The notes: generated by a model from the sequence alone, not told the origin. A stretch of 64,000 nucleotides of DNA from Sphingomonas sp. Root710 (GCF_001429065.1 NZ_LMIB01000015.1:334905-398904); one strand, 5' to 3'. Shown: positions 38,887 through 61,793, counted from the stretch's first letter. Translations and numbers: made by a program.

Positions 38887-38913
38887 ATCCCTCGCTTTCG
38901 GCACCTTCCAATA

Positions 38914-39065: not shown

Positions 39066-39107
39066 CTAAGGCGTCAACGAACGCCGGATCGATATGGGGA
39101 GGCGCTT

Positions 39108-41402: not shown

Positions 41403-41414
41403 CCCTTCCTCACC

Positions 41415-41448: not shown

Positions 41449-41465
41449 GTGTCTGGAGAAGATAG

Positions 41466-44996: not shown

Positions 44997-44997
44997 C

Positions 44998-46992: not shown

Positions 46993-48015
46993 TCAGCGCG
47001 CGAAGGGCGGGTTGGTCGCGACCGGGGCGCTGTCGTCGAGACCCAGGTTGAACAACCTGTTGGCGTTGTTGCGCCCGATCTTCAGCCGGTCGGCCTCGCT
47101 GATCGTCGCCCGGTCGAACCAATTGGCGGCGTGATCGACATTCTCGAACGGCCAGTCGGCCGAGAAGAGGATGCGGTCCGATCCGATCTCCAGCATCGTG
47201 TCGATAAGCGACTGGGTGCGGAAATTGCCCGAGGTCGTGACGTAGAAATTATTGTGGAAATAATGCGCGATCGGGTGCTTCGCGGGATGCTTCTTGGGCA
47301 GCGTGACCCAGGCATTGCGGTTGTCGACCCGCCACATCGAGATCGGCAGCCCCTCGCCCATGTGCCCGATGATAATGGTGAGGTTCGGATGCTCGTCGAA
47401 GAGCCCCGATCCCATCAGCCGCAGTGCATGGACCGCGGTCTCCTGTCCGAAGGCCCAGGTCGGCCCGAGCAGCCATTCATGCCCGGCATAGATTTGCGCG
47501 TGCTGTGGCAGCGGGTTGCGCGGGTGCAGGTAGAAGGGAACTCCCAGCCGCTCGACCTCGGCCCAGAAGGGCCGGAACAGCGGCAGGTCGTAATAGAGCA
47601 TCTCGCTGCCGTCGCCGGCCTGCGAGAAGCCGTTGACCAGCGCGCCCTTGAAGCCGAGTTCGGTGATGCAACGGGTCATCTCGCGGGTCGCGGCGTCGGG
47701 ATCTTGGAGCGGCAGCGCGGCAAAGCCCTGAAAACGATCGGGCCGCTTGGCGACCTGTTCGGCCAGATAATCGTTGGCGCGCTGCGCGATCTCGGTCGCT
47801 TTCGCTTTATCGGGAATCCCCTGCACCGCCGGAGCATTGAGCGACAGGATCATCATCTCGATCCCGTTGGCATCCATCTCGCGCAGCCGGCGGTCCTGGA
47901 TGTCCATGATCCGCGCGGAGAGTTCGGCCAGGAACTCGCCGGGCACGAAGATCGCCGAATCCTGCAATGTCTCCGGGATGGCGAAATGCTCTTCGAGCGC
48001 GATCTTCCCCTTCAT
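46993..48015 (-). CDS. Gamma-resorcylate decarboxylase (amidohydrolase family)
   Basis: Zinc/Mn amidohydrolase-fold decarboxylase of 340 aa turning 2,6-dihydroxybenzoate into resorcinol. The N-terminus KIALEEHFAIPETLQDS is closely family-typical. The expected metal and catalytic residues are all present at their family positions: Glu8, His10, His164 (YLHPRNP), His218 (GHMGEG) and Asp287 (FSADWPFE). Other amidohydrolase decarboxylases (OMPDC/ACMSD type) keep parts of this pattern, but the overall fit to gamma-resorcylate enzymes is strong. It is the entry point for the ring-hydroxylation and hydroxyquinol steps encoded around it. Confidence 0.93.
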   Translation of the reverse strand: MKGKIALEEHFAIPETLQDSAIFVPGEFLAELSARIMDIQDRRLREMDANGIEMMILSLNAPAVQGIPDKAKATEIAQRANDYLAEQVAKRPDRFQGFAALPLQDPDAATREMTRCITELGFKGALVNGFSQAGDGSEMLYYDLPLFRPFWAEVERLGVPFYLHPRNPLPQHAQIYAGHEWLLGPTWAFGQETAVHALRLMGSGLFDEHPNLTIIIGHMGEGLPISMWRVDNRNAWVTLPKKHPAKHPIAHYFHNNFYVTTSGNFRTQSLIDTMLEIGSDRILFSADWPFENVDHAANWFDRATISEADRLKIGRNNANRLFNLGLDDSAPVATNPPFAR

Positions 48016-48039: not shown

Positions 48040-48939
48040 TCAGCCGATTGGCGTGACGAGTTCGCCGCACGGGCCGATTTCCATCCGCACCACGTCGCCC
48101 GCCTTCAGATATTCGCCCTTGCCATGGCCGACGCCCGCGGGGGTGCCGGTGGCGATGATGTCGCCCGGATAGAGCGTCATGATCGATGTCAGATGCTCGA
48201 TGATCGGGGCGACGCCGAACACCATTTGCTGGGTGTTGGAGTCCTGCTTCATCACGCCGTTGACGCTCAGCTTGACCGGCATGTCCTGCGGATCGGCGAC
48301 GAAACGTGCCGGCACCAGATAGGGACCGAAGGGCGCGAAACCGTCAAACGCCTTGTGCTGCACCCAGTCGATCCCGACCGGCGGACGGCTGGCGAGCCAG
48401 TCGCGCGCCGACAGGTCGTTGAAGTTAAGATAGCCCGCGACCACCGACAGCGCATCGCCCTCGGAAACCTCGCTGCAGGTGCAGCCGATCACCACGCCCA
48501 GCTCGGCCTCCCAGTCCATCATCTTGGCCTTCTTCGGCACCGGCACCGATTCCCCCGGACCGCGCACCGTGTTGTTGACCGGCTTCATGAAGGCATAGGG
48601 ATAGCTGGGCGTCATCGGGATCGCCATTTCGGCGATATGGTCGTGATAGTTGGAACCGATGCAGGCGATCTTGCCGGGGTTGGCGATCGGCGCCAGGAAA
48701 TCCGCTTCCGCCGCAGCCGAGCCCGCTGCGAAGGCCGCGCTATTTGTATCCACATATTGCGCGATAGCCGCGTCGACACTCTCCCAGTCGTCGAGCAGCG
48801 GCTGCAGATCAGACGGTGGCGTGGCGAACTTTCCGGGCAGCACCGTCTCGAGCGGCAGCAGCTTGCCGCCATGCTCGACGACCACCTGGCCGCCGCCCTT
48901 GGCCGCCCGCACAACGGCCAGACGATAGATATTGCTCAT
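48040..48939 (-). CDS. Fumarylacetoacetate-hydrolase-family enzyme
   Basis: A 299-residue FAH-superfamily protein: IACIGSNYHDHIAEM, PYAFMKPVNNTVRGPGE, MDWEAELGVVIG (metal-binding E-x-E type), GYLNFNDLSARDW, PFGPYLVPARFV, DIIATGTPAGVGHGKGEYL. Members hydrolyse or decarboxylate 2-oxo acid intermediates in meta-cleavage, homoprotocatechuate or tyrosine routes. It starts with ATGA coupling to the tautomerase and precedes the decarboxylase by 24 nt. It is not needed for a plain hydroxyquinol pathway, so it implies an additional intermediate or a broader substrate. Confidence 0.88.
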   Translation of the reverse strand: MSNIYRLAVVRAAKGGGQVVVEHGGKLLPLETVLPGKFATPPSDLQPLLDDWESVDAAIAQYVDTNSAAFAAGSAAAEADFLAPIANPGKIACIGSNYHDHIAEMAIPMTPSYPYAFMKPVNNTVRGPGESVPVPKKAKMMDWEAELGVVIGCTCSEVSEGDALSVVAGYLNFNDLSARDWLASRPPVGIDWVQHKAFDGFAPFGPYLVPARFVADPQDMPVKLSVNGVMKQDSNTQQMVFGVAPIIEHLTSIMTLYPGDIIATGTPAGVGHGKGEYLKAGDVVRMEIGPCGELVTPIG

Positions 48940-49225: not shown

Positions 49226-49921
49226 TTATTGTGCAGCCGGCTGCTTCGCTGGCTCGACATGACGGAACATCGCTTGCCGCGCCTCCTTATCGAACTCGGC
49301 CTTGAATGCATGCTTCTCGCGGAGCCCCGCGGCGGCCTGCGCGGCGGGCCGGGCGTCGATCGCCGCGAGCAGCCGCACGACATTGGGAAGCTCGGCGCGC
49401 GCATCGGGGCCGAGGACATAATCCATGTTCCGGATCCACCCCCATGTCGCCATGTCGACGATGCTGAAGGCGTCCCCGACCATCCATTGCCGGTTCGCGA
49501 GATGACCTTCGAGCACGTCGTAATGGCGGCGCGCCTCGAACGCATAGCGCTGTACCGCGTAGTCCTTGGGCTCGGGCGCATAATGGCGGAAGTGGACCGC
49601 CTGGCCCGAATAGGGGCCGAGCCCGGTCGCGACGAACATCAGCCAGGACAAAAGCTGGGCGCGATGCTCCGCGGCGGGCAGGAATCGCTGATATTTCTCG
49701 GCGAGATAGAGCAGGATCGCGTTGCTGTCGAAGATTGCGACCCCGTCGTCGACCACGATCGGCAGCTTGCTGTTCGGGTTGAGCTCCACGATCTCGGGCG
49801 AGAACTGCTCACCCCGCAGCATGTCCACTGGAACCAGCCGATAGGGAAGCCCGGCCTCTTCGAGGAACAGGGCGACCTTCATCGGGTTGGGCCCGAAATT
49901 ATAATAGAAGTCGATCATCAT
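49226..49921 (-). CDS. Glutathione S-transferase-family protein
   Basis: Cytosolic GST of 231 aa: IDFYYNFGPNPMKVALFLEEAGLPYRLVPVDMLRGEQFSPEIVELNPNSKLPIVVDDGVAIFDSNAILLYLAEKY is the thioredoxin-like N-domain with the GSH-binding SNAI (Ser) stretch; an all-helical C-domain follows (WMVGDAFSIVDMATWGW). It resembles bacterial beta/nu-like GSTs, including ring-fission isomerases and disulfide reductases. Placement upstream of the tautomerase operon, with an operon-sized gap, suggests a role in the same catabolism. Substrate not defined. Confidence 0.85.
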   Translation of the reverse strand: MMIDFYYNFGPNPMKVALFLEEAGLPYRLVPVDMLRGEQFSPEIVELNPNSKLPIVVDDGVAIFDSNAILLYLAEKYQRFLPAAEHRAQLLSWLMFVATGLGPYSGQAVHFRHYAPEPKDYAVQRYAFEARRHYDVLEGHLANRQWMVGDAFSIVDMATWGWIRNMDYVLGPDARAELPNVVRLLAAIDARPAAQAAAGLREKHAFKAEFDKEARQAMFRHVEPAKQPAAQ

Positions 49922-50002: not shown

Positions 50003-50602
50003 TCAGGCGCTCAGCTTGGCTGCGATCGACGCGACATGTTTGCCGAGGTAGCGCGCGCCCTCGAGATCGGCCTGGCTCGGCTGGCGGGAGCCATTGCCGT
50101 CGGACAGCGTGCTAGCGCCATAGGGCGTCCCGCCCTTCACCTCTTCAAGCCCCATCTGCCCCTGAAAGGCATAAGGCAGGCCCGTGACGACCAGCCCGTG
50201 GTGAATCAGGTTGGTGAGGATCGAGAAGAGCGTGGTCTCCTGCCCGCCATGCTGGGTAGCGGTCGAGGTGAAGGCCGCGCCGACCTTGCCGGTCAACGCA
50301 CCGGTGAACCATAAGGGGCCGGTCTGATCCCAGAACTGCGCCATCTGCGACGGCATGCGGCCGAAGCGGGTCGGTGCACCGACGATGATCGCGTCATAGC
50401 CCGGCAGTTCCTCGACGGTGGCAAGGGGAGCTTCCTGGTCCAGCTTGAAATGAGCGGCCTGCGCGATTTCGGCGGGCACCAGTTCGGGCACGCGGCGGAT
50501 GTCGACCTGCGCACCACCAGCGGCGGCGCCCTCCGCCACCGCAGCGGCCATTGTCTCGATATGACCATAAGAGGAGTAATAGAGCACGAGCACCTTGGCC
50601 AT
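50003..50602 (-). CDS. wrbA: NAD(P)H:quinone oxidoreductase (WrbA-type)
   Basis: Tetrameric flavodoxin-fold quinone reductase of 199 aa: [38 protein letters not shown] (FMN phosphate loop), [26 protein letters not shown], and [31 protein letters not shown], all typical WrbA signatures. In this setting it could keep hydroxyquinol or hydroxybenzoquinone reduced, avoiding redox cycling. A GGATRCA-like motif lies 26-37 nt upstream of its ATG. Confidence 0.92.
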
Positions 50603-50627
50603 ATCTTGATCTTCCTGCGTTCAAAAA

Positions 50628-50639
50628 TGTGGATACAGA
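50628..50639. promoter_or_regulatory. GGATRCA-type motif before wrbA
   Basis: TGTGGATACAGA lies 26-37 nt before the wrbA start at 50602, where it would overlap the promoter -10/-35 region. It keeps the GGATRCA core but loses the outer A and T. Confidence 0.35.
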
Positions 50640-50683
50640 TTTCCCACGGTCGCATCTCCGAGTCAAGATAGGACTTGTGCGTC

Positions 50684-51628
50684 TTATATGGCCATCGGCA
50701 TTTTTGCTACTCTCGGTTCCGGATATTCGGCACACATGTCGAGCACGATGCCGCGCAGCCATTCATGCGCGGGATCATGGTCGTGCCGCATATGCCAGAG
50801 CATCTTGATCGCGGCGCGCGCGGTCTCGCGCGGCAGCTCGATCTTTCGCACACCCCCATAGCTGCACATCTGCGGCGCGAGGCGGCCCGGGACGACGCCG
50901 ATCGAATCGGTGCCAATGACCATCGGTGCGATCGACAGGAAGCTGGGCACCCTTACCCGAGGCGGGTGCCGGTCGGACAGGCCATCGATGGCATTGTCCT
51001 CCACCGGCAATTTGCTGCCGAGGAAATGGGTCGCGACATGCGGATAGGCGAGCAGGTCGTCCACCGTCGCAGAATCGCGCAGCGGGTGCTCGCTGTCGAC
51101 GATGCCGACGAAACGGTCCTCCATCAGCGTTCTGGTGCGTACCGCGCGCGCCGCTTCTCCCGCCGCATGGGTTATGACGTCCCCGGTCAGGCATAATTCG
51201 ATACTGCCCGAATAGACGCTGTCGACGGGCTTATCGATCGCCACCATTTCGAAGGTCACATGCGGCGCGATTTTCCCGACGCGCGCTATGATCTGGGGCA
51301 GCAGCAGGAACAACCCGAACTCCGAGGACATAATCCGGAAATGCCGGCGCAACGCCGCGGGATCGAAATCGGAATCGACCGACGTCAGCTTTTCGAGCGC
51401 CAGCAGCATCTGCCGCACTTCGGGCATCAGCGACGCGCCGCGCGCGGTCAGTTCCATCGTGCGCCCGACGCGCACGAGCAGCGGATCGTCGAGCTGCTCG
51501 CGCAGGCGTCCGAGCATACCGCTCATCGTCGGCTGGCTCACTCCGAGCTGCCGAGCGGCAGCCGTCACATTGCGATGGCTGAGCAGCGCGTCGAGCGCAG
51601 GCAGCAAGTTCAGATCGAGATTGGACAT
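50684..51628 (-). CDS. LysR-family transcriptional regulator
   Basis: A 314-residue LTTR: MSNLDLNLLPALDALLSHRNVTAAARQLGVSQPTMSGMLGRLREQLDDPLLVRVGR is a textbook N-terminal wHTH, followed by the two-lobed effector domain. It resembles NodD/NahR-type regulators (LALEKLTSVDSDFDPAALRRHFRI). ATG 51628 has GGAGGG upstream; seven extra residues from 51646 are not needed. Divergent from the flavin monooxygenase at 51788, with a T-N11-A dyad (51664-51680) in between, so it probably activates that gene with an aromatic co-inducer. Confidence 0.9.
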   Translation of the reverse strand: MSNLDLNLLPALDALLSHRNVTAAARQLGVSQPTMSGMLGRLREQLDDPLLVRVGRTMELTARGASLMPEVRQMLLALEKLTSVDSDFDPAALRRHFRIMSSEFGLFLLLPQIIARVGKIAPHVTFEMVAIDKPVDSVYSGSIELCLTGDVITHAAGEAARAVRTRTLMEDRFVGIVDSEHPLRDSATVDDLLAYPHVATHFLGSKLPVEDNAIDGLSDRHPPRVRVPSFLSIAPMVIGTDSIGVVPGRLAPQMCSYGGVRKIELPRETARAAIKMLWHMRHDHDPAHEWLRGIVLDMCAEYPEPRVAKMPMAI

Positions 51629-51663
51629 AGTCCCTCCAGCTACCAAGACAAAGTGTACACAAC

Positions 51664-51787: not shown

Positions 51788-53017
51788 ATGAACCAGTTCG
51801 CACCGACCGCCCCCCGTGCGTCCGCCGCAGACCCCGCGATCGCCGACGAAATGGTCGCACGCGCGGCGGCGCTGCGCCCGCTTCTGGCGGAGCGCGCGCG
51901 CCAGACCGAGATCGACGGACGCGTTTCCGACGACATCACCCGCATGCTGGCCGAAGCCGGAATCTTCGCGCTCGGCCAGCCGCGAAGCTTCGGCGGCACC
52001 GCGCAGCCGCCATCGGTGATGGTGCGGGTGGCCTTCGAACTGGGCCGCGGCTGCGGCAGCACCGCCTGGTGCGCCTCGATCGGCGCGGTCAACGCCTGGC
52101 TCGCCTCCTATTGGCCGATCGAGGCGCAGCGCGAGATTTGGGAGAACAGCCCAGGCAACCTCGTTATCGGTACCTTCGTTCCTACCGGGCACTGCGAGCC
52201 TGTCGAAGGCGGGTACCGGGTCCGGGGCCGCTGGCCGTTCGGCAGCAATTGCGACAGCGCCAACTGGATGTTCGTGTCGGCCACCCTGCCCCCCTCCGGC
52301 GACAGGCCCGCGGATGTGGGCTGGTTCATGGTCCCGGCCGCGGAACTCGCGATCGATCATGACAGCTGGCGGGTCAGCGGCATGCAGGGCACTGGCAGCA
52401 AGACCCTCTTCGCTGGCGAGCCGCTGTTCGTGCCCGAGCATCGCGTCATCCGCTTCTCCGACGTGGTGAAGGTGTCGACGCCCGGCCGAGCGATCGACGG
52501 CAACACCATGGCGCATTTCGGCTTCACCACCTTCGGCGCGGCCACCCTCGTCGCGCCGATGCTCGGCATGGCGCAGGGTGCGCTCGACTGGTTCGTCGCG
52601 GCCATGGCGAAAAAGGCGAAGACCAGCCTTAAGCCGGGCGGTGCGGGGCTGGTGGCGCAAAGCCCCTTCGTCCAGGCCCGCGTCGGCGCGGCATCGGCGG
52701 CGATCGACAGCGCGATGACCCTGCTGCTGGCCGACCTCGCCCCCGTTGAGGCCAAGGTTCTGGCGGGCGGGACGCTCGAGCCCGCCGAACGCATCCGTAT
52801 CCGGCGCAACATCGGCTTCGCCGCGCAACAGGCGGTCCATGCGGTCAACCTGCTGTTCGAAGGGGCGGGCGGCTCGGCGACCGCGCTGGATACACCTATC
52901 CAGCGCTTCTGGCGGGACATCAACGCAGCGGCGCGCCACGCCTCACTCGAAGTGCAACCCATTTACGCCCTGTACGGGGAAGAGCGATTCGGCCTGCCGC
53001 CGGTCGGCCAGTTCTGA
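51788..53017 (+). CDS. Group D flavin-dependent monooxygenase (candidate resorcinol hydroxylase)
   Basis: A 409-residue acyl-CoA-dehydrogenase-fold protein of the type used as the oxygenase of two-component FMNH2/FADH2 monooxygenases (HpaH, HsaA, GraA group). It has the N-terminal helical domain (AAALRPLLAERARQTEIDGRVSDDITRMLAEAGIFAL), GGTAQPPSVMVRVAFELGRGCGSTAWCASIGAVNAWLASYWP, GRWPFGSNCDSANWMFVSA, and a late RNIGFAAQQAVHAVNLLFEGAGGSATALDTPIQRFWRDI. Because a resorcinol-forming decarboxylase and hydroxyquinol dioxygenase are nearby, resorcinol to hydroxyquinol is the best guess. The small flavin reductase such enzymes require is absent from the window. Confidence 0.85.
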   Translation: MNQFAPTAPRASAADPAIADEMVARAAALRPLLAERARQTEIDGRVSDDITRMLAEAGIFALGQPRSFGGTAQPPSVMVRVAFELGRGCGSTAWCASIGAVNAWLASYWPIEAQREIWENSPGNLVIGTFVPTGHCEPVEGGYRVRGRWPFGSNCDSANWMFVSATLPPSGDRPADVGWFMVPAAELAIDHDSWRVSGMQGTGSKTLFAGEPLFVPEHRVIRFSDVVKVSTPGRAIDGNTMAHFGFTTFGAATLVAPMLGMAQGALDWFVAAMAKKAKTSLKPGGAGLVAQSPFVQARVGAASAAIDSAMTLLLADLAPVEAKVLAGGTLEPAERIRIRRNIGFAAQQAVHAVNLLFEGAGGSATALDTPIQRFWRDINAAARHASLEVQPIYALYGEERFGLPPVGQF

Positions 53018-53165
53018 AGGTACGTTCGAAAAGGCGGTAATTTTTTAGTGGTGCCCATATCGCCGAACCGCTTTGGCTACCGATTATCCCGGAATTGCGG
53101 GAAACGACCGAAACAAAAATATTGGAAGTATAAGTCTTATCTTGACGACGGGGGCGCAACATGAA

Positions 53166-53177
53166 AGAGGATACACT
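53166..53177. promoter_or_regulatory. GGATRCA-type motif before the second TonB receptor
   Basis: AGAGGATACACT lies 92 nt upstream of the receptor ATG at 53269 and matches AGTGGATGCACT except at two bases. The gap around it (53018-53268) shows no gene. Confidence 0.35.
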
Positions 53178-53268
53178 TTGAAGGCATAGTTCATATGCGC
53201 TTCGGACGTGACCCCCATATGCCGGCAAAGACCGACGCAGTGAAAAACAGTCAGAGGAGGATGTGATC

Positions 53269-55404
53269 ATGAGGAACGCCCGTAAATTCCAGCTGATCGG
53301 CGCGAGCGTCGCCGCGCTCGTGCTGGGCGGCGCTGCGCAGGCGCAAGACGCGCAGCAGGCCGAAGGCGCCGCCAGCGGCGGCCTGGAAGAGATCGTCGTC
53401 ACCGCACAGAAGCGCAGCGAGAACCTTCAGAAGACGCCGGCCGCAGTCACCGCCTTCACCGGCAACTCGCTGGTCCAGAGCGGCACCACCGACCTGCGCG
53501 CCGTGCAGAACATCGTCCCCGCCGCCCGCTTCCAGCAGGAAGGCGCCACCACCCAGGTCATCCTGCGCGGCGTCGGCTCCAACCTCGACTTCGGCAACGT
53601 CGAGCCGACGGTCGCCTTCAACGTCAACGGCATCTTCACCCCGCGCGAGGGCACCAGCCAGCCGCTGTTCGACCTCGACCGCATCGAAGTCCTGCCTGGA
53701 CCGCAGGGCACCCTGTACGGCCGCAACGCACTGGGCGGCACGATCAACATCTCGTTCAAGCGTCCGACACACGACCTCGAAACCAGCGGCGTCCTCGAAG
53801 GCGGCAATTACGACCTGATGCACGCCACGGTGGTGCAGAACGTGCCGCTGGGTGAAGGCGTCGCCGCCCGCGCCGCGATCGATTTCACCAAGCGTGACGG
53901 TTATATGGAATCGGGCGCCTATTCGAAGGACGACATCGCCGCCCGCCTCGGCCTGCTGTTCGACCGCACCGAGGGCTTCACCGCCTATCTGTGGGGCCAG
54001 TATACGAAGCGCGACGGTTCGCCGTCGAACCTCGTCAACAAGGGGTTCGACCCGAACACCGGCCAGTTCAGCGAGAACGCCTTCCTGCGCGGCGATCCGT
54101 GGGACGATCTGCGCGTCGGCGCCTTCGCCGCGCCGGGCGCCCTACCCTTCGGCCAGCCGATCAAGGAAAAGCAGAAGTATAATCTCTATAATTTCGGCGC
54201 TCAGTTCGATCTCGAGGTCGCCGACGGGCTCACCCTCACCTATGTCCCCGGCTATTTCCGCCTCGACTCGAACTCGTCCTACTGGCTGGGCGTCATTCCC
54301 GATTTCAAGGAAGACAATTATCGCCTGATCACCCAGGAACTGCGCCTGTCGGGCAAGTCCGACCGGTTCGACTGGCTGGCCGGTATTTACGCCTACACGC
54401 AGAAAACCTACGGCTATTCCTTCGTCGGCAAGGCCGCCGGTCCGTTCGGCTTCATCGCCTCGGGCGTGCTGCACCACCGGGTGAAGGGCATCGCCGCCTT
54501 CGGCCAGGGCACCTACAAGATCAGCGACATGTTCCGCGTCACCGTTGGCGGCCGCGCCAGCTACGACAAGCGCAAGGCCAACGGCATTTCGCCGGATGTC
54601 GGCAATCCGCTCTATGATTTCGAGAAGTCGTTCAAGCGGTTCGATTACAAGGTCGGCGTCGAATATGACGTCGCGCCGACCGCGATGGTGTACCTCACCT
54701 ATCAGACCGCCTACCAGCCCGGCACCTTCAACGAAGTCCCGTCGACGCCGCTGAAGTCCAACCTGATCAGCTCGCCGAAGCTGTCGTCGTTCACCGGCGG
54801 CCTCAAGACCCGCTTCCTCGACAACACGCTGCAGATCAACGTTGAAGGCTTCTACTACAAATATAACGACCTGCTGCTGCAGGCTTATGATGCGAGCAAG
54901 CCGTATAACGAGATCTTCAACGCCAGGGCTGAGACCTACGGCGTGCAGATCGACACGGTGTTCCAGCCGACTCCCGACGATCGCTTCTCGGCGTCGCTGG
55001 GCTACCTCCATGCGCGGACGAAGAGCTATAAGGTTCCGGGCCTGACGGCGTTCGAGAATCTCAGCCTGCCCTATGCGGCCGACTGGACGATCAACGTCGC
55101 CTATCATCACGACTTCCACCTCTCGAACGGCTATATCCGTCCGGCGGTCGATGCGCGCTACGAAAGCTCCTACTTCGCCGACTTCGTCCACACGCCCGGC
55201 ACCCGGCAGAAGCCGACCTGGCGCGAGAACGCCTCGCTCACCTACTTTGCGGACAGCAACAAGTGGAGCGCGGGTCTCTGGATCAAGAACATCACCAACA
55301 AGGCGGTGATCGCCGCGACCGCCGCCGCCGGCATCCCCGGCCCGGCGACCGCCTATCTCGAAGAGCCGCGCACCTACGGCGCGCGCGTCACCTTCAACTT
55401 CTAA
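53269..55404 (+). CDS. TonB-dependent outer-membrane receptor
   Basis: A 711-residue receptor with signal peptide MRNARKFQLIGASVAALVLG ending near AQAQ, the TonB box LEEIVVTAQKR, plug motifs (TTDLRAVQNIVPAARFQQEGATTQVILRGVGSN, LDRIEVLPGPQGTLYGRNALGGTINI) and a C-terminal Phe (ARVTFNF). AGGAGG 8 nt upstream selects ATG 53269. It is followed 15 nt later by an SDR and then five to six small enzymes on the same strand, so it heads a catabolic operon and likely imports the operon substrate. It is distinct from the first receptor, with a shorter plug-barrel connection. Confidence 0.93.
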   Translation: MRNARKFQLIGASVAALVLGGAAQAQDAQQAEGAASGGLEEIVVTAQKRSENLQKTPAAVTAFTGNSLVQSGTTDLRAVQNIVPAARFQQEGATTQVILRGVGSNLDFGNVEPTVAFNVNGIFTPREGTSQPLFDLDRIEVLPGPQGTLYGRNALGGTINISFKRPTHDLETSGVLEGGNYDLMHATVVQNVPLGEGVAARAAIDFTKRDGYMESGAYSKDDIAARLGLLFDRTEGFTAYLWGQYTKRDGSPSNLVNKGFDPNTGQFSENAFLRGDPWDDLRVGAFAAPGALPFGQPIKEKQKYNLYNFGAQFDLEVADGLTLTYVPGYFRLDSNSSYWLGVIPDFKEDNYRLITQELRLSGKSDRFDWLAGIYAYTQKTYGYSFVGKAAGPFGFIASGVLHHRVKGIAAFGQGTYKISDMFRVTVGGRASYDKRKANGISPDVGNPLYDFEKSFKRFDYKVGVEYDVAPTAMVYLTYQTAYQPGTFNEVPSTPLKSNLISSPKLSSFTGGLKTRFLDNTLQINVEGFYYKYNDLLLQAYDASKPYNEIFNARAETYGVQIDTVFQPTPDDRFSASLGYLHARTKSYKVPGLTAFENLSLPYAADWTINVAYHHDFHLSNGYIRPAVDARYESSYFADFVHTPGTRQKPTWRENASLTYFADSNKWSAGLWIKNITNKAVIAATAAAGIPGPATAYLEEPRTYGARVTFNF

Positions 55405-55419
55405 CTATGGAGACATTGC

Positions 55420-56187
55420 TTGACCGGCATGCTGAATAATCTTTCGGTCCTGGTCACGGGTGCCGGTGGCGGAATTGGTTCCGCCACCGCTCTCGTTCTG
55501 GCGGGGCATGGCGCCCGCCTGATCCTGACCGACGTCAACAAGGATGCCGGTGAAGCCGCCACCCAGGCGGTCACCGCCGCCGGCGGCGAGGCTTATTTCG
55601 TTCCCGCCGATCTCGGTTCCGAAAGCGAGATCGCGGGGCTGGTGAAGGCGACCGTCGACCGCTTCGGCCGGATCGACGGCGCGTTCAACAATGCGGCGGT
55701 CGAGCAATCGAACAAGCCGCTCGACGAGATCACCACCGAGGAATGGGACCGCGTCGTCCGTATCAACCTCTCCGCGGTGTTCTTCTGCATGAAATATCAG
55801 GCGCGGGCGATGCTGGCGCAGGGCGGCGGCTCGATCGTCAACACCGCCTCCTCGCTGGCCCAGGTCGGGCTGGCCGGCGCCTCCGATTATTCCGCCGCCA
55901 AGCATGGCGTGCTCGGCCTCACCCGCTCGGGTGGTGCCGACTATGGCGAACGCGGCATCCGCGTGAACGCGATCCTGCCGGGCATCACCCGCACGCCGAT
56001 GATCAAGCGGCTGAGCGAGGATCCCCAGCTGTCGGCAGTGTTCGACCGGCTGCGCCTGCGGCACTCAATGGGCCGCTTCGGCGAACCGAGCGAGATCGGT
56101 GAATCGGTTGCCTGGCTGCTCTCGCCGCAGGCATCCTTCGTCAACGGCGCGGCTATCGCGGTCGACGGCGGCTATCTCTCGATCTGA
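55420..56187 (+). CDS. Short-chain dehydrogenase
   Basis: Classical SDR of 255 aa: TGAGGGIGSATALVLAGHGARLILTDVNKDAGEA (the acid after the second strand hints at NAD preference), NNAAVEQSNKP, ASSLAQVGLAGASDYSAAKHG (catalytic Tyr-Lys), PGITRTPMIK, VDGGYLSI. TTG 55420 is 7 nt after GGAGA and preferred; an ATG at 55429 is the alternative. Second gene of the TonB-led operon. An alcohol dehydrogenase step on an imported substrate is plausible. Confidence 0.88.
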   Translation: MTGMLNNLSVLVTGAGGGIGSATALVLAGHGARLILTDVNKDAGEAATQAVTAAGGEAYFVPADLGSESEIAGLVKATVDRFGRIDGAFNNAAVEQSNKPLDEITTEEWDRVVRINLSAVFFCMKYQARAMLAQGGGSIVNTASSLAQVGLAGASDYSAAKHGVLGLTRSGGADYGERGIRVNAILPGITRTPMIKRLSEDPQLSAVFDRLRLRHSMGRFGEPSEIGESVAWLLSPQASFVNGAAIAVDGGYLSI

Positions 56188-56200
56188 AGCGGAGGCACGC

Positions 56201-56656
56201 ATGTACACTCTCTCCCACGCCATCCCGATCAACCCCGAAGGGGTCGAACCGAAGCTGACTCGCGAGCAGGTCTGGGCCGGGCTCGAACTCAAGGCGGTCG
56301 ACGCAAAGCCGTTCGTGAACGGCATGAGCCAGTGCGATCTGATCGAGCGCACGGCAACGACCATCAAGCGCGAGATCACTTTCGCGGGTGCTCAGAGCCA
56401 GGAATTCATTACCTTGTTCGCTCCGGTGAAGGTCCAGTTCGAGCGCCTCGACGGCACCGGCTGGATCGACAATGTCATCAGCGATTCCGAATATGGCATG
56501 TTGCTGTCCTTCACCTTCGGGATCATCTTTCCCGGCATCGAGGAGGGCTCGCCAGAAGAGACGGCGAAGGGCGACAGCATGCGAGGCGCCTATACCGGCG
56601 CGGTCGCGGCGACCCTCAAGAAGGTCCGCGAAATGGTAGCCGCCGGCGAACTTTGA
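56201..56656 (+). CDS. DUF1857 (AtaL-like) SRPBCC-fold protein
   Basis: A 151-residue protein opening with MYTLSHAIPINPEGVEPKLTREQVWAGLELKAVDAKPFVNGMSQCDLIERTATTIKREITFAG, which fits DUF1857, a Bet v1/SRPBCC-like family with no firm biochemical role; fungal members occur in polyketide-related clusters. Core strands continue through QEFITLFAPVKVQFERLDG and SEYGMLLSFTFGIIFPGIEEGS. ATG 56201 has GGAGG just upstream. It lies 13 nt after the SDR stop. Confidence 0.78.
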   Translation: MYTLSHAIPINPEGVEPKLTREQVWAGLELKAVDAKPFVNGMSQCDLIERTATTIKREITFAGAQSQEFITLFAPVKVQFERLDGTGWIDNVISDSEYGMLLSFTFGIIFPGIEEGSPEETAKGDSMRGAYTGAVAATLKKVREMVAAGEL

Positions 56657-56682
56657 ACGGCGGCATCAGGAGGAGAGAGGCA

Positions 56683-57060
56683 GTGGCTCTGGAATGGGTG
56701 GCGGATTTCTTCCGCGACGCCGACACGGTGAAGATCGACAATCTGGCGAAATGGTTCGCCGACGACATCGACCTGCGCTTTGCCAACAACCCCGCGATCC
56801 GCGACAAACAGACCGCTGTGGAGGTGATGGGCGGCTTCTATTCGTCGATCGCCGGCATGAAGCATGAGCCGGTCCATATGTACGCGGCCGGCGACGACGA
56901 CACCGCCTCGCAATATGCGATCGTCACCTACACCCGCCATGACGGGCGCGACGTGCCGCTGCCGGTCTCCAGCCTGCTCCACCGCAACGCGGCGGGCCAG
57001 CTCGACAAGCTGTGGATCTATATCGACATCGCTCCGCTCTATGCCGAGGCCACCGCGTGA
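56683..57060 (+). CDS. NTF2/SnoaL-like protein (short form)
   Basis: A 125-residue cone-shaped NTF2-fold protein: LEWVADFFRDADTVKIDNLAKWFADDIDLRFANNPAIRDKQTAVEVMGGFYSSIAGMKHEPVHMY, then strands ASQYAIVTYTRHDGRDVPLPVSSLLHRNAAGQLDKLWIYIDIAPLY. GTG 56683 has AGGAGGAGAGAGG upstream. The stop overlaps the next SDR start (TGATG). It lacks the His-rich motif seen in the two larger NTF2-fold paralogues at 57832 and 58878, so it probably has another role, binding or isomerisation. Confidence 0.78.
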   Translation: MALEWVADFFRDADTVKIDNLAKWFADDIDLRFANNPAIRDKQTAVEVMGGFYSSIAGMKHEPVHMYAAGDDDTASQYAIVTYTRHDGRDVPLPVSSLLHRNAAGQLDKLWIYIDIAPLYAEATA

Positions 57061-57815
57061 TGCGCCGCTTCGAAGGCAAGTCCGTCATCGTCACCGGATC
57101 GGGCGGCAGCATCGGCCGCGCCGCCGCAATCCGCTTCGCATCGGAGGGGGCCAATGTCGTCGGCTGCGATGTCGTTGCGCCCGGCAATGACGAAACCGCG
57201 CGCCTGATCAAGGAGGCCGGCGGCACGATGGTCGCTGTGACCGCCGACCTGACCGACAAGACCGAATGCGAGCGGCTGGTGAAAACCGCGGCCGATAGCT
57301 TCGGCGGGATCGACGTCCTCTTCAACAACGGCGCGATGGCCTATTTCGCCTGGATCGAGGATATGGACGACGACACCTGGTACAAGACGATAAACCAGGA
57401 ACTCGACCTCGTCTTCCTGCTCACCCGCGCGGCTTGGCCCGAGCTGATCAAGAGCAAGGGCAATATCGTCAACACCGCGTCGATGTCGGCCTGGGTCGGC
57501 ATAGAATTGCTTCCCGGCCTCGCCCACACCGCGGCCAAGGGCGGCGTGCTGTCGATGACCCGCCAGCTCGCGATGGAAGGCCGCAAGCACGGCATCCGCG
57601 CCAACACCGTGTCGCCGGGCACGATCGAGACCAACCAGACCCGCTTCATCCTCGAAGACCCCGAATGGTGCAAGATCCAGCTCGGCCGCGCGATGATCAA
57701 CCGCATGGGCCAGCCGTCGGAAGTCGCCAGCGTGGTCGCCTTCCTGGCGAGCGACGACGCGTCCTATGTCACCGGCGCCGACATCGCGGTCGACGGCGGC
57801 GTACGGGCCTGGTGA
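57060..57815 (+). CDS. Short-chain dehydrogenase
   Basis: SDR of 251 aa: GSGGSIGRAAAIRFASEGANVVGCDVV, NNGAMAYFAWIEDMDD, TASMSAWVGIELLPGLAHTAAKGG, in which the usual catalytic Tyr is replaced by His in HTAAKG. SPGTIETNQTRFI and VDGGVRAW complete it. The missing catalytic Tyr is notable because the Lys is kept: activity may be altered or the protein may be a partner subunit. Its start overlaps the preceding NTF2 gene by one base (TGATG), so the two are translationally coupled. Confidence 0.85.
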   Translation: MRRFEGKSVIVTGSGGSIGRAAAIRFASEGANVVGCDVVAPGNDETARLIKEAGGTMVAVTADLTDKTECERLVKTAADSFGGIDVLFNNGAMAYFAWIEDMDDDTWYKTINQELDLVFLLTRAAWPELIKSKGNIVNTASMSAWVGIELLPGLAHTAAKGGVLSMTRQLAMEGRKHGIRANTVSPGTIETNQTRFILEDPEWCKIQLGRAMINRMGQPSEVASVVAFLASDDASYVTGADIAVDGGVRAW

Positions 57816-57831
57816 GCGGCGGAGAGACGAT

Positions 57832-58371
57832 ATGACCAACGAAGAAAAGCTGCTTGAGCTGTGGGAAGACAAGCAGGTCATGCGCACCATGCTGAACTTC
57901 GGCCGTGCGCTCGACCTGGGCGATTGGGCGCTCTACCGCTCGACCTTCACCGACATAGTCAACATCGATTTCACCCGGCTGACGACGATGCCCGAAGTGC
58001 GCGTCTCGGCCGACCTGTGGACGAAGTTCGCCGAACAGATCCTCAGCCCGGTCCGCCGCCACCATGTCTACACCAACTGGGACATCAAGGTGGACGGCGA
58101 CAAGGCCTATGCGCTGGTCTACATGACTGCGCGCCACTTCAAGGCAGGCGATCGCGGCGCCAGCGACAACGCCCAATATGGCTGGTACGATGTGTGGCTG
58201 GAACGCTCACCCAAGGGCTGGCTGATCTACCGGCTCAAGCATGATTTCCAGTGGATAGAGGGTAATGACTCGCTGCTCGACGTGCATCAGCCAGAGCTGA
58301 TGAAGACGATGTACGAGATCTTCACAGAAGAGAATATCAAGGCCGCCCAGGCCGCGCTTACCGCAGCCTGA
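57832..58371 (+). CDS. NTF2/SnoaL-like lyase candidate (long form A)
   Basis: A 179-residue NTF2-fold protein (MTNEEKLLELWEDKQVMRTMLNFGRALDLGDWALYRSTFTDIVNIDFTRL, then AEQILSPVRRHHVYTNWDIKVDGDKAYALVYMTARHF). The Asp after GDW...FTD, the His in RRHHVYTN and the late His in ARHF recall the Asp-His-His set of scytalone dehydratase and related lyases. Similar folds in sphingomonads act on lignin-derived dimers (LdpA/LsdE-like formaldehyde lyases), but that equivalence is only a hypothesis. A close paralogue lies at 58878. Starts 16 nt after the SDR. Confidence 0.78.
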   Translation: MTNEEKLLELWEDKQVMRTMLNFGRALDLGDWALYRSTFTDIVNIDFTRLTTMPEVRVSADLWTKFAEQILSPVRRHHVYTNWDIKVDGDKAYALVYMTARHFKAGDRGASDNAQYGWYDVWLERSPKGWLIYRLKHDFQWIEGNDSLLDVHQPELMKTMYEIFTEENIKAAQAALTAA

Positions 58372-58461
58372 CGACGGACATGCCGCGCTCGCCGCGGTCT
58401 GAAACAGGACGATGGCGCCTGCCGGCAAGACGACCGGCAGCGCCGTGAGGAGGAGAGGGAC

Positions 58462-58851
58462 ATGAGCGTGAGCGACCACTGGGTACTCGAGCGTTTCCGC
58501 GCGGTCGACCGCAAGGATATCGACGGCTTCATCGACATGCTGACCGACGATCATGTCTTCCTCTTCGGCGGCCGCCCGCCGGTCGTCGGCAAGGACGACG
58601 CGCGCGAACAGGTGCTGATCTTCTGGTCGATGATCGGCCGGCTGAAGCATAATATCTGGCGCGTGACCGAGGCGGGCGACCTCGTCTTCGTCGAGGCCAA
58701 TGTCGATTATGAGCGGCCCGACGGCACCTGGGTGGTCGTCCCCTGCTGCGACGTCATCCGCATTCGCGGCGACAAGATCTGCGAACAGCGCGCCTATCTC
58801 GACCAGAGCGCAGTGTTCGCCGACGAACCCGGCGAAGTCCGCGCCGCCTGA
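58462..58851 (+). CDS. NTF2/SnoaL-like protein
   Basis: A 129-residue NTF2-fold protein: VLERFRAVDRKDIDGFIDMLTDDHVFLFGGRPPVVGKDDAREQVLIFWSMIGRLKHNIW, then GDLVFVEANVDYERPDGTWVVVPCCDVIRIRGDKICEQRAYLDQSAVF, the standard SnoaL-like pattern ending in the sheet. It follows a 90-nt gap, with GAGGAGAGGGAC upstream of ATG 58462, the largest gap in this operon. Function unknown; SnoaL-type proteins bind or cyclise aromatic polyketides, or act as isomerases. Confidence 0.78.
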   Translation: MSVSDHWVLERFRAVDRKDIDGFIDMLTDDHVFLFGGRPPVVGKDDAREQVLIFWSMIGRLKHNIWRVTEAGDLVFVEANVDYERPDGTWVVVPCCDVIRIRGDKICEQRAYLDQSAVFADEPGEVRAA

Positions 58852-58877
58852 ACTGCTACCTCTTACGAAAGCCGATC

Positions 58878-59417
58878 ATGACTGACGCCGCGAAGCTCGC
58901 TACCATCTGGGACGAGCGCAACATCCGCAACGCGATGCTCCAGTTCGGCGCGACACTCGATTCCGGCGACTGGGCCGCGCATCGCGCCTGCTTCATGGAT
59001 GTCGCCAATATCGATTTCGAACGGCTGACCGGCCAGAAGGAAATCCGCCTCAATACCGACCTGTGGGTCGCATTCGCCGACGCGATCCTCTCTCCAGTCC
59101 GGCGCCACCACACCTATTCCAACTTCCGCATCGACGTGCAAGGCGACCGCGCCTTCGTCCGCCTCAAGCACACCTCGCGCCACTGGAAGCTCAGCGACAG
59201 CGGCGGCGTCGAATATAACCAATATGGCTCCTATGATGTCTGGTTCCGCCGTGTAGCAACCGATGTCTGGAAGATCGAATATCTCAAGCACGACTTCACC
59301 TGGTCGAACGGCAACAACGCGATGTTCGACATGCGCGAACCCAAGCTGATCGAGGCGATGGCCAAGGTGTTCGTCCCGGAGCATTTCGCCGCCGCGGTCA
59401 GCAACCCGGTCGGTTAG
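58878..59417 (+). CDS. NTF2/SnoaL-like lyase candidate (long form B)
   Basis: A 179-residue paralogue of the protein at 57832: MLQFGATLDSGDWAAHRACFMDVANIDFERLTGQKEIRLNTDLWVAFADAILSPVRRHHTYSNFRIDVQGD, then RLKHTSRHWKLS. The GDW-Asp, RRHH and RHW His positions are conserved between both copies although much of the rest differs. This suggests two related active enzymes rather than a recent inactive duplicate. It is the last gene of the plus-strand operon before a repeat half-element and a convergent LysR gene. Confidence 0.78.
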   Translation: MTDAAKLATIWDERNIRNAMLQFGATLDSGDWAAHRACFMDVANIDFERLTGQKEIRLNTDLWVAFADAILSPVRRHHTYSNFRIDVQGDRAFVRLKHTSRHWKLSDSGGVEYNQYGSYDVWFRRVATDVWKIEYLKHDFTWSNGNNAMFDMREPKLIEAMAKVFVPEHFAAAVSNPVG

Positions 59418-60435: not shown

Positions 60436-61143
60436 ATGACCAAGATTTATTCATCCGCCGCGGCGGCGCTTGAAGGCCTGCTGTTTGATGGAATGACCAT
60501 CGCATCGGGCGGATTCGGCCTGTGCGGCGTGCCCGAGCGGCTGATCGACGCGATCGTCGCCTCGGGGGTAAAGGGCCTCACCGTTGCCTCGAACAATGCC
60601 GGTATCGACGGCGAAGGGCTCGGCAAATTGCTCCGCAGCCGCCAGATCGCCAAGATGATCAGTTCCTATGTCGGCGAGAACAAGGAGTTCGAGCGGCAAT
60701 ATCTGGCTGGCGAACTCGAGGTCGAGTTTTGCCCGCAGGGCACGCTGGCAGAGCGGATGCGCGCGGGCGGCGCGGGCATTCCGGGCTTCTACACCAAGAC
60801 CGGCGTCGGCACGCTGGTCGAGGAAGGCAAGGAGACCAAGGAGTTCGACGGACAGACCTATATCCTCGAACGCGGCATCCGTGCCGATGTCTCGATCATC
60901 AAGGGCTGGAAGGCCGATGAGAGCGGCAACCTCGTCTTCCGCAAGACGGCGCGCAACTTCAATCACCCCGCCGCCACCTCGGGCAAGATCTGCGTCGCCG
61001 AGGTGGAGGAAATCGTCCCCACCGGCAGCCTCGATCCCGACTCGATCCACCTTCCCGGCGTCTATGTGAAGCGCATCGTGCTCGGGGCGCCCTATGACAA
61101 GAAGATCGAGTTCCGCACCGTCCGGCAGAAGGAGACCGCATGA
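60436..61143 (+). CDS. pcaI: 3-oxoacid (3-oxoadipate) CoA-transferase subunit A
   Basis: Alpha subunit of a succinyl-CoA:3-oxoacid CoA-transferase, 235 aa: [51 protein letters not shown] is the glycine-rich CoA-binding start, followed by [42 protein letters not shown]. Because the pathway here ends in 3-oxoadipate, PcaI-type activity is inferred, but 3-oxoacid transferases for acetoacetate are very similar and cannot be separated by eye. AGGAGGATCGCCG precedes ATG 60436. Coupled by ATGA to the beta gene. Confidence 0.9.
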
Positions 61144-61793
61144 TGGCCACGCTGATCAAGGGCTGGGACCGCAACCAGATGGCGGCACGCGCCGCGAAGG
61201 AACTGCGCGACGGCTATTATGTGAACCTCGGCATCGGCATTCCGACGCTGGTCGCCAACAACATCCCGGAAGGGATGACCGTCACGCTGCAATCGGAGAA
61301 CGGTATGCTCGGCATCGGCCCCTTCCCCTATGAGGGCGAAGAGGATGCCGACCTGATCAACGCGGGCAAGCAGACGATCAGCGAACTGCCCTCGTCGAGC
61401 TACTTCTCCTCGGCGGACAGCTTCGCGATGATCCGCGGCGGCCATATCGACCTTACCGTGCTCGGCGCGATGGAAGTGTCGGAAACCGGCGACATCGCCA
61501 ACTGGATGATCCCCGGCAAGATGGTCAAGGGCATGGGCGGCGCGATGGATCTGGTCGCGGGCGTCAAGCGGATCATCGTCGTGATGGAGCACACGTCGAA
61601 GAACGGCGACCCGAAGTTCATCCCGGCCTGCACCCTGCCGCTGACCGGCAAGAATGTCGTCGACATGATCATCACCGATCTGGCGGTGTTCCAGCGGCCC
61701 GATCACAACTCGCCGTTCAAGCTGATCGAGACCGCCCCCGGCGTCACTCCCGAGGACGTCGCGGCGCGCACCACGGCGCACTATCTGGTCTGA
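61140..61793 (+). CDS. pcaJ: 3-oxoacid (3-oxoadipate) CoA-transferase subunit B
   Basis: Beta subunit, 217 aa, with the catalytic-Glu motif [84 protein letters not shown]. Glu in SENG forms the CoA thioester intermediate. The start overlaps the alpha stop (ATGA, 61140-61143) so the two subunits are made together. Its thiolase partner is not in the window. A hairpin terminator follows. Confidence 0.9.

What the first reader, a model, noticed from the sequence alone, without database searches (positions are those of the whole stretch)
53269..59417. TonB receptor-led operon with two SDRs, DUF1857 and four NTF2-fold proteins: possible undescribed pathway
Eight genes on one strand, mostly with 0-26 nt gaps, join an outer-membrane importer to two SDRs, a DUF1857 SRPBCC-like protein and four NTF2/SnoaL-fold proteins. 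Such small-enzyme sets can carry out oxidation, dehydration, retro-aldol or C-C cleavage on a complex imported molecule. Being next to a resorcinol/hydroxyquinol route suggests the operon feeds an aromatic product such as gamma-resorcylate into it. I know of no described pathway with this exact gene set.
Basis: partly seen in the sequence, partly recalled or inferred. Interest (0 to 1): 0.75.

Follow-up and report, generated by a model that had tools for sequence, protein, structure and literature searches.

The report
Sphingomonad operon for an unknown polyphenol
Eight linked genes in a sphingomonad bacterium look like the uptake and first-breakdown steps for an unidentified multi-ring phenolic compound, and they share a promoter element with genes that open single aromatic rings, so they mark out a breakdown pathway whose starting compound is still unknown.

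Summary
In detail: eight same-strand genes at 53269-59417, six of seven gaps -1 to 26 nt, one 90 nt. They encode a TonB receptor, two SDRs, an AtaL/DUF1857 protein and four SnoaL/NTF2 proteins. The set recurs, with losses and one split, in five further sphingomonad genomes. A promoter element found upstream of the receptor in 6 of 6 genomes also precedes the minus-strand wrbA-GST-FAH-gamma-resorcylate decarboxylase-dioxygenase genes (3 of 4 tested). A related palindrome precedes a catechol meta-cleavage operon outside the window (6 of 6, partly circular). This is the best evidence for one catabolic regulon, probably for a compound with at least two aromatic rings. The gamma-resorcylate branch is present in only 3 of 6, so it is a strain-specific outlet. 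A lignin-dimer/stilbene route is unlikely because this genome has no RPE65-family stilbene dioxygenase. The NTF2b model falls among NTF2 proteins that include scytalone dehydratase, BaiE and LdpA. SDR2 is atypical: its catalytic Tyr and Asn are His and Glu in all ten SDR2-type sequences aligned. Substrate, regulator and the NTF2 reactions are inferred, not shown. New variant of a known kind.

The parts
53269..55404 (+). TonB-dependent outer-membrane receptor (711 aa), first gene of the operon
   Evidence: Pfam PF00593 4.2e-24, PF07715 5.6e-13; orthologue heads the set in 6 of 6 loci
55420..56187 (+). SDR1, classical SDR with intact YxxxK (TTG start; ATG at 55429 possible)
   Evidence: PF13561 2.1e-65; motif
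56201..56656 (+). AtaL/DUF1857 protein, START/Bet v 1-type fold
   Evidence: PF08982 4.7e-35; model pLDDT 90, best fold hit 2ffs
56683..57060 (+). NTF2a, SnoaL_2 protein (GTG start)
   Evidence: PF12680 1.2e-06; 49-83% identical orthologues in 4 of the 5 other operon-positive genomes
57060..57815 (+). SDR2, atypical SDR with His for the catalytic Tyr and Glu for the catalytic Asn
   Evidence: PF13561 5.2e-59; 10 of 10 SDR2-type rows of A6
57832..58371 (+). NTF2b, SnoaL_4 protein (179 aa), fold of the NTF2 group that includes scytalone dehydratase, BaiE and LdpA
   Evidence: PF13577 2.5e-16; model pLDDT 85.7 and fold search
58462..58851 (+). NTF2c, SnoaL_2 protein
   Evidence: PF12680 4.9e-16; 77-94% identical copies in the 5 other operon-positive genomes
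58878..59417 (+). NTF2d, SnoaL_4 paralogue of NTF2b (45% identical)
   Evidence: PF13577 1.4e-12; at the operon locus, orthologue seen only in SRS2
53123..53146 (+). Promoter element el1 (19-mer at 53128-53146 plus left half of palindrome O1), upstream of the receptor
   Evidence: 6 of 6 loci (from which the consensus was read); for controls
53164..53179 (.). Palindromic element el2 (AAAGAGGATACACTTT)
50662..50680 (-). Second copy of el1, upstream of wrbA
   Evidence: 2 mismatches of 19; 0 matches in 100 shuffles of the window; also in SRS2 and G204
50626..50641 (.). el2-like site upstream of wrbA
   Evidence: 3 mismatches of 16
51812..53017 (+). HsaA-like flavin-dependent phenol monooxygenase, oxygenase component
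   Evidence: NF045629 305 bits, cut-off 450; 5 of 6 operon-positive genomes at E<=1e-60
50684..51646 (-). LysR regulator
   Evidence: PF00126/PF03466; seen at 4 of 6 loci
50003..50602 (-). WrbA NAD(P)H:quinone oxidoreductase, first gene of the minus-strand group
   Evidence: PRK03767 327 bits, cut-off 141
49226..49921 (-). Glutathione S-transferase family protein
   Evidence: PRK13972 4.4e-46, below cut-off
48040..48939 (-). Fumarylacetoacetate hydrolase family protein
   Evidence: PF01557 1.8e-64; seen in all six operon-positive genomes
46993..48015 (-). Gamma-resorcylate decarboxylase
   Evidence: E 1.5e-168 to 2dvt over residues 1-324
45919..46980 (-). Iron-type alcohol dehydrogenase, probable maleylacetate reductase
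   Evidence: PF25137/PF00465; function from context
44998..45903 (-). Intradiol dioxygenase, probable hydroxyquinol 1,2-dioxygenase
   Evidence: PF00775/PF04444; NCBIfam catechol models below cut-off
44271..45107 (-). Dienelactone hydrolase family protein
   Evidence: PF01738 1.4e-41
42870..43616 (-). GntR/FCD regulator, candidate regulator of the set
   Evidence: PF00392/PF07729; of the four regulators compared, the only one seen at all six operon loci
60436..61793 (+). Two-subunit 3-oxoacid CoA-transferase, probable 3-oxoadipate step
   Evidence: TIGR02429 234 bits (cut-off 128.5) and TIGR02428 318.9 bits (cut-off 243.55); 92-93% identical pair beside the operon in SRS2

Best explanation
The eight genes are the uptake and upper-pathway operon of a catabolic island. 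The TonB receptor imports a phenolic compound, probably of at least two rings. SDR1 oxidises or reduces a hydroxyl/keto group. SDR2, the START-fold AtaL protein and the NTF2 proteins carry out cofactor-free or redox-neutral steps (dehydration, isomerisation or retro-aldol C-C cleavage) that prepare the molecule for splitting. NTF2b and NTF2d would act as Asp-His acid/base catalysts of the scytalone dehydratase/BaiE type. The rings released go to two outlets: a catechol-type ring to meta-cleavage (all six genomes) and, in this strain, a 2,6-dihydroxybenzoate-type ring via gamma-resorcylate decarboxylase to the hydroxyquinol-type ring-opening genes and CoA transferase. A shared operator, perhaps read by the conserved GntR/FCD protein, switches the operons together. 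Shown: gene set, conservation, shared promoter element, sequence identity of the decarboxylase, of 2-hydroxymuconic semialdehyde dehydrogenase and of the CoA transferase family. Inferred: substrate, order of steps, the reactions of the SDR, AtaL and NTF2 proteins, co-transcription, and which regulator binds.
For: Conserved gene set in six genomes: the window's genus (four genomes), the separate genus of G094, and SC_3, filed under Sphingobium. Element el1, read from six TonB promoters, is found again upstream of wrbA in the window, SRS2 and G204; in the window, 0 matches in 100 shuffles at up to 3 mismatches. In 14 genomes, sites with 0-1 mismatch number ten, all in the six operon-positive genomes. 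Palindrome O1 with at most 4 mismatches: TonB 6 of 6, meta-cleavage ALDH 6 of 6, wrbA 3 of 4, pirin-NTF2c-FAH 1 of 1, each reached by at most 1 of 200 shuffles. Gamma-resorcylate decarboxylase by sequence. ALDH above the TIGR03216 cut-off, 839.6 against 693.25. P450 at 65% identity or more, and the meta-cleavage ALDH, dioxygenase, aldolase-type and DmpE/H-like genes, in 6 of 6. NTF2b fold among dehydratases, with D28 and H78 in 12 of 12 relatives, aligned to scytalone dehydratase.
Against: No substrate, expression or enzyme data. el1 was read from the TonB promoters, and O1 from TonB and ALDH promoters, so those 6 of 6 counts are partly circular; the wrbA sites and the genome searches are the more independent part. 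At up to 2 mismatches the reversed control pattern gave 3 matches in the own genome against 2 for el1, and 18 over the 14 genomes against 17; only the 0-1-mismatch sites separate the genomes, and mismatch numbers of the control were not shown. In the whole window O1 at up to 4 mismatches has two further, unrelated sites (10655, 23911). O1 is not found upstream of HsaA, GntR, the CoA transferase or TonB38 in the window, nor of wrbA in G094 or NTF2a in G204. The scytalone dehydratase match is weak (E about 0.006) and its tyrosine positions differ. The gamma-resorcylate branch is missing from three operon-positive genomes. The meta-cleavage genes were not looked for in operon-negative genomes. 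A flavin reductase partner for the HsaA-like enzyme was not searched for.
Confidence: 0.6

Rival explanations
1. A lignin-dimer pathway of the LdpA/PcfL type: an NTF2 protein removes formaldehyde from a dimer to give a stilbene, which a stilbene dioxygenase cleaves.
For: SDR plus NTF2 is the published logic of that route (PMC12997858 and PMC11323797, passages). LdpA structures appear in the fold search with TMq 0.59-0.61, as good as BaiE's 0.51-0.62.
Against: No PF03055 match in this genome at E<=1e-20 (0 candidates), although 29 of 59 family genomes have one. LdpA chains are 236-244 aa against 179, 17-18% identity, ranks 45-46 by E-value.
Confidence: 0.09
2. A steroid or bile-salt pathway: NTF2b is a BaiE/Hsh2-like dehydratase and the flavin enzyme is HsaA.
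For: BaiE structures rank 10, 20, 26 and 37 in the fold search; HsaA is the best-named relative of the monooxygenase; Hsh2 is an NTF2-like dehydratase of a sphingomonad (PMC12175502, passages).
Against: HsaA model score 305 against a cut-off of 450. The linked ring-opening genes are catechol and resorcylate type. Ring-A/B steroid genes were not searched for.
Confidence: 0.08
3. A tailoring set for making an aromatic polyketide (AtaL, SnoaL cyclases, ketoreductases) rather than degrading one.
For: AtaL and SnoaL are named after biosynthetic proteins; the DUF1857 model also matches WhiE ORFVI aromatase/cyclase.
Against: Importer at the head; promoter element shared with ring-cleavage genes; no polyketide synthase among the neighbours scanned; the rest of the window was not family-scanned.
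Confidence: 0.05
4. The operon and the resorcylate/hydroxyquinol genes are unrelated neighbours.
For: Three operon-positive genomes lack the decarboxylase; at loose tolerance el1 is no commoner than its reversed control.
Against: el1 with 0 and 1 mismatch of 17 lies before each of the two operons and nowhere else in 4.77 Mb at up to 2; the decarboxylase occurs only in operon-positive genomes among 14; the arrangement is kept in SRS2 and, rearranged, in SC_3.
Confidence: 0.09

Closest known systems
Gamma-resorcylate/resorcinol catabolic clusters (tsd, gra; names recalled)
   Same: Gamma-resorcylate decarboxylase, intradiol dioxygenase, iron-type alcohol dehydrogenase and 3-oxoacid CoA transferase in one neighbourhood
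   Different: Here linked by a promoter element to an importer-led SDR/AtaL/NTF2 operon; resorcinol hydroxylase and its reductase are not established
LdpA/PcfL lignin-dimer routes of Novosphingobium and SYK-6
   Same: SDR redox steps and an NTF2-superfamily enzyme on a two-ring compound in sphingomonads; comparable TM-score
   Different: No stilbene dioxygenase in this genome; NTF2b is shorter and only 17-18% identical to LdpA
Scytalone dehydratase and bile-acid 7-alpha dehydratase BaiE/Hsh2
   Same: Fold (TMq 0.51-0.66) and, for scytalone dehydratase, an aligned Asp and His
   Different: 14-18% identity; scytalone dehydratase tyrosines not conserved; genomic context differs
Anthraquinone degradation by Sphingobium sp. 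AntQ-1 (PMC9836352, passages)
   Same: Polycyclic aromatic taken to catechol, which enters meta-cleavage, plus a second acid
   Different: That route is proposed to start with Baeyer-Villiger monooxygenases and give phthalate; main-text counts are 0 for SnoaL, TonB and short-chain dehydrogenase, though a BtuB transporter is mentioned
Isoflavone catabolism (ifc) cluster of Variovorax (PMC11069340, passages)
   Same: Dedicated cluster for a two-ring plant phenolic in bacteria that also hold catechol meta-cleavage genes
   Different: Starts with an 8-hydroxylase; main-text counts are 0 for dehydratase, short-chain dehydrogenase, TonB and resorcylate

Membership tests
Gamma-resorcylate catabolic pathway | Gamma-resorcylate decarboxylase | tested here: met
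   E 1.5e-168 to 2dvt and 2.6e-154 to 3s4t/4qro, over residues 1-324 or 1-325 of 340
Gamma-resorcylate catabolic pathway | Resorcinol hydroxylase with reductase | tested here: inconclusive
   HsaA-like oxygenase, below the HsaA cut-off; the reductase was not searched for
Gamma-resorcylate catabolic pathway | Hydroxyquinol dioxygenase and maleylacetate reductase | tested here: inconclusive
   Right Pfam families, but no specific NCBIfam model reached its cut-off
LdpA/PcfL gamma-formaldehyde lyase route | Partner lignostilbene dioxygenase (RPE65 family) | tested here: not met
   0 matches in the own genome
LdpA/PcfL gamma-formaldehyde lyase route | Close sequence similarity of the NTF2 enzyme to LdpA | tested here: not met
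   17-18% identity; chain length 236-244 against 179; TMq 0.59-0.61
Scytalone dehydratase/BaiE-type dehydratases | NTF2 fold of this class | tested here: met
   pLDDT 85.7 model; 4std, 1std, 4leh and 4l8p among the top 30, as are uncharacterised proteins
Scytalone dehydratase/BaiE-type dehydratases | Catalytic Asp and His (scytalone dehydratase D31/H85, recalled numbers) | tested here: met
   D28 and H78 in 12 of 12 relatives, aligned to an Asp and a His of 4std
Scytalone dehydratase/BaiE-type dehydratases | Carbonyl-binding tyrosines (Y30/Y50, recalled) | tested here: not met
   Position 27 is Leu in 12 of 12, position 47 Phe in 11 of 12 (alignment)
Classical short-chain dehydrogenases (SDR2) | Glycine-rich cofactor motif, catalytic Ser and Lys | tested here: met
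   T12, G13, G19, S141 and K160 invariant in A6
Classical short-chain dehydrogenases (SDR2) | Catalytic Tyr and Asn | tested here: not met
   His and Glu in 10 of 10 SDR2-type rows; Tyr and Asn in the 3 other rows
Catechol meta-cleavage pathway (island, outside the window) | 2-hydroxymuconic semialdehyde dehydrogenase | tested here: met
   TIGR03216 839.6 bits, cut-off 693.25, own-genome protein
Catechol meta-cleavage pathway (island, outside the window) | Extradiol dioxygenase | tested here: inconclusive
   Two-domain VOC protein, TIGR03213 96.7 bits against a cut-off of 366
Catechol meta-cleavage pathway (island, outside the window) | Hydratase/decarboxylase, aldolase and acetaldehyde dehydrogenase | tested here: inconclusive
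   DmpE/DmpH-like proteins below cut-off; DmpG and DmpF above cut-off but scanned only from SC_3
Steroid 9,10-seco pathway | HsaA and ring-A/B genes | tested here: inconclusive
   HsaA below cut-off; other genes not searched

The most novel reading that the evidence does not exclude
The operon encodes an undescribed way to split a two-ring phenolic (for example a flavonoid-, xanthone-, benzophenone- or hydroxyanthraquinone-type compound) into a catechol and a 2,6-dihydroxybenzoyl unit. In it, an SDR-fold enzyme with an E-S-H-K active site works with a START-fold AtaL protein and several NTF2 proteins. That SDR would not be an ordinary dehydrogenase, and the AtaL family would gain a catabolic function.
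Probability: 0.3. Interest if true: 0.78.

Novelty: new variant of a known kind. Interest (0 to 1): 0.55.

Why it matters
NTF2 proteins are abundant and largely unassigned in sphingomonads (one review counts 62 NTF2 homologues in SYK-6; PMC12997858, passages). Here four NTF2 proteins and one AtaL protein sit in a rare gene set tied by a promoter element to ring-opening enzymes. If that link holds, it narrows the products to a catechol and, in three strains, a gamma-resorcylate, and so makes the substrate findable. SDR2 is a compact test case for an altered SDR active site.

Tried and rejected
Lignin-dimer route: rejected as main reading, on the missing dioxygenase and the low identity to LdpA. 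I first took SnoaL_4 proteins lying near stilbene dioxygenases (L081, L096, L098) for LdpA/PcfL relatives; they share 16-23% identity with NTF2b and NTF2d. The fold search then showed that solved LdpA chains are 236-244 aa, so I withdraw that label; they count only as NTF2 proteins near such dioxygenases.

Gamma-resorcylate as the universal product: rejected, because three operon-positive genomes lack the decarboxylase. I also first thought that the P450 and the meta-cleavage genes marked a different variant from the resorcylate type; two searches showed both in all six genomes, so that idea was dropped.

AtaL/DUF1857 homologues on the Rhizobium and Agrobacterium plasmids that I opened gave no useful context; the Caballeronia copy lies among aromatic genes; the Novosphingobium PP1Y record opened carries no annotation. 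Sigma-70 and terminator scans gave nothing above shuffles. el2 alone is too weak for a genome-wide search and was used only locally. A literature search for an SDR with His for Tyr listed nothing direct.

Full report
OBSERVATION. Six of seven gaps run from -1 to 26 nt; the gap before NTF2c is 90 nt. Pfam assigns a TonB receptor, two adh_short_C2 SDRs, AtaL (DUF1857), two SnoaL_2 and two SnoaL_4 proteins. NTF2b and NTF2d are 179-residue paralogues, 45% identical.

DISTRIBUTION. The window lies in G000:C15:334905-398904. NTF2b is rare. In a family sample, 11 of 199 genomes had a match at E<=1e-10, but only G000, G174 and G094 had one at 59% identity or more. In an order sample 2 of 396 matched at 1e-30 (own and G127, the latter with 39-53% relatives), and in a phylum sample 1 of 398 at 1e-25 (own). 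These are samples, and the order and phylum samples did not pick up the other operon genomes. In the genus, 4 of 14 have SDR2 at 1e-60. A pattern-based scan of named genomes gave Sphingobium phenoxybenzoativorans SC_3, Sphingomonas sp. SRS2 and Rhizorhabdus histidinilytica UM2. Six operon-positive genomes were studied: the window genome, SRS2 (= G202), UM2 (= G174) and G204 of one genus, G094 of another, and SC_3 (= G884).

GENE ORDER. SRS2 keeps all eight genes plus HsaA, LysR, WrbA, GST, FAH, decarboxylase, dioxygenase and CoA transferase; the iron-type alcohol dehydrogenase and dienelactone hydrolase were not seen in that stretch. UM2 keeps TonB to NTF2b, with NTF2c behind a pirin gene and before FAH elsewhere on the same contig. 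G094 has the set with a P450 between NTF2c and NTF2b. SC_3 lacks NTF2a and NTF2d in the operon but has a 46% NTF2a relative nearby. G204 has the set split over two contigs. TonB, SDR1, AtaL, SDR2, NTF2b, NTF2c, FAH and GntR were seen in all six.

REGULON. Aligning the six TonB upstream regions shows a 19-base element (el1) ending in TTGAC and a 16-base near-palindrome (el2) downstream. el1 with up to 3 mismatches occurs twice in the window, before TonB and before wrbA on the other strand, with none in 100 shuffles. A 17-base core with up to 2 mismatches occurs at just these two places in the 4.77-Mb genome (0 and 1 mismatch), but the reversed control pattern gave three matches at that tolerance. 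Among 14 genomes, 17 sites match at up to 2 mismatches against 18 for the reversed control; the ten sites with 0-1 mismatch all lie in the six operon-positive genomes, and the seven with 2 mismatches are scattered over four operon-negative and three operon-positive genomes. The element also precedes wrbA in SRS2 and G204 and the pirin-NTF2c-FAH genes in UM2. Its left part resembles a palindrome, AGGACGTATACGTCCT, that I read from the ALDH and TonB promoters. With at most 4 mismatches it is found before the meta-cleavage ALDH in 6 of 6, TonB in 6 of 6, wrbA in 3 of 4 (not G094) and the pirin gene in UM2, each reached by at most 1 of 200 shuffles; it is not found before HsaA, GntR, the CoA transferase or TonB38 in the window, nor before NTF2a in G204, and the second LysR gene gave 5 mismatches (4 of 200 shuffles as good). 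Two unrelated sites with 4 mismatches also lie in the window. Of four regulators compared (GntR, two LysR, TetR), only GntR/FCD was seen at all six loci; a MarR-type gene beside the meta-cleavage genes was seen in four. GntR is therefore the best candidate, not a demonstrated regulator.

RING-OPENING BRANCHES. The minus-strand genes include a gamma-resorcylate decarboxylase (E 1.5e-168 to 2dvt), an intradiol dioxygenase, an iron-type alcohol dehydrogenase and a dienelactone hydrolase; a 3-oxoacid CoA transferase lies on the plus strand. The decarboxylase is in the window genome, SRS2 and SC_3, not at E<=1e-80 in UM2, G204 or G094, nor in the eight operon-negative genomes. A second branch lies outside the window at G000:C15:313387-318611: a 2-hydroxymuconic semialdehyde dehydrogenase above its cut-off, a two-domain VOC dioxygenase, a class II aldolase-type protein and DmpE/DmpH-like proteins. 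These are in all six operon-positive genomes; the operon-negative ones were not searched for them. A P450 at 65% identity or more is also in all six, at C15:296846-297997 in the own genome; the only operon-negative match at 1e-60 is 38% (G114). The HsaA-like enzyme is in five of six, not in G204; G208, operon-negative, has a 46% relative. Two outlets suggest at least two aromatic rings in the substrate; that is inference.

PROTEINS. The NTF2b model (six sequences, pLDDT 85.7) matches 4gb5 best, then several uncharacterised proteins, BaiE (rank 10), scytalone dehydratase (rank 11) and, at ranks 45-46, LdpA. By TM-score these three are alike (BaiE 0.51-0.62, scytalone dehydratase 0.60-0.66, LdpA 0.59-0.61), so the fold does not choose between them. 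D28 and H78 are present in 12 of 12 relatives and align with an Asp and a His of scytalone dehydratase, while its tyrosine positions hold Leu (12 of 12) and Phe (11 of 12). The AtaL model (pLDDT 90) is a START/Bet v 1 fold, nearest 2ffs, with a polyketide aromatase/cyclase among its matches. SDR2 and nine relatives, one from a Caballeronia plasmid, have His for Tyr in YxxxK and Glu for the catalytic Asn, while SDR1 and two other window SDRs are canonical.

RIVALS. A stilbene-forming lignin route is disfavoured by the absence of RPE65 proteins in this genome, although 29 of 59 family genomes have them. Bile-salt degradation shares the NTF2 fold and an HsaA-like enzyme but not the linked ring-opening genes; steroid ring genes were not searched. 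A biosynthetic role fits the family names but not the importer and the shared promoter element.

LITERATURE. Ten library searches listed no description of the gene set. Passages were read in PMC12997858, PMC11323797, PMC12175502, PMC11069340 and PMC9836352. Catalytic residue numbers of scytalone dehydratase, the SDR catalytic tetrad, the tsd/gra gene names and the substrate classes named as candidates are recalled.

VERDICT. The pathway class is known (sphingomonad aromatic catabolism); the combination and the altered SDR are a new variant. The substrate remains unknown.

Noticed in passing
L030 (G000:C1:1560001-1580000) and L043 (G000:C1:148001-168000): Two further clusters in the same genome combine SDR2-type His-for-Tyr SDRs with NTF2 or AtaL proteins and aromatic-type enzymes, so the module seems to be reused for other substrates.
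   Followed up: partly
window 36955-42215: TetR, PNPOx-type protein, SDR, a second TonB receptor (38796-41402) and another SDR. SC_3 carries similar TetR, PNPOx-type, SDR and receptor genes beside its operon; the receptor and last SDR matched at 67% and 73%. An el2-like site at 39052-39067 precedes the receptor's likely start.
   Followed up: partly
window 43788-44258: HtaA-domain protein (PF04213, 5.9e-21) at the end of the decarboxylase gene group, 66% identical in SRS2; an odd companion for ring-cleavage genes.
   Followed up: no
window 29000-36780: Block of polysaccharide flippase, methyltransferase, DegT aminotransferase and glycosyltransferase genes with lower third-position GC than most called genes, possibly acquired.
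   Followed up: no
L047 (NZ_CP084287.1, Caballeronia plasmid): AtaL-family protein beside FAH, FCD regulator, VOC proteins and an SDR2-type SDR, next to gentisate dioxygenase genes: a betaproteobacterial cluster with the same building blocks.
   Followed up: partly
L138 13330-14688 and L027 16064-17344: A second HsaA-like flavin enzyme is shared by the window genome's island and SC_3, 67% identical; 134.9 bits to the HsaA model, cut-off 450.
   Followed up: no
L027 10531-11457: A 308-residue protein with no Pfam match at 1e-5 sits between NTF2b and NTF2c in SC_3.
   Followed up: no
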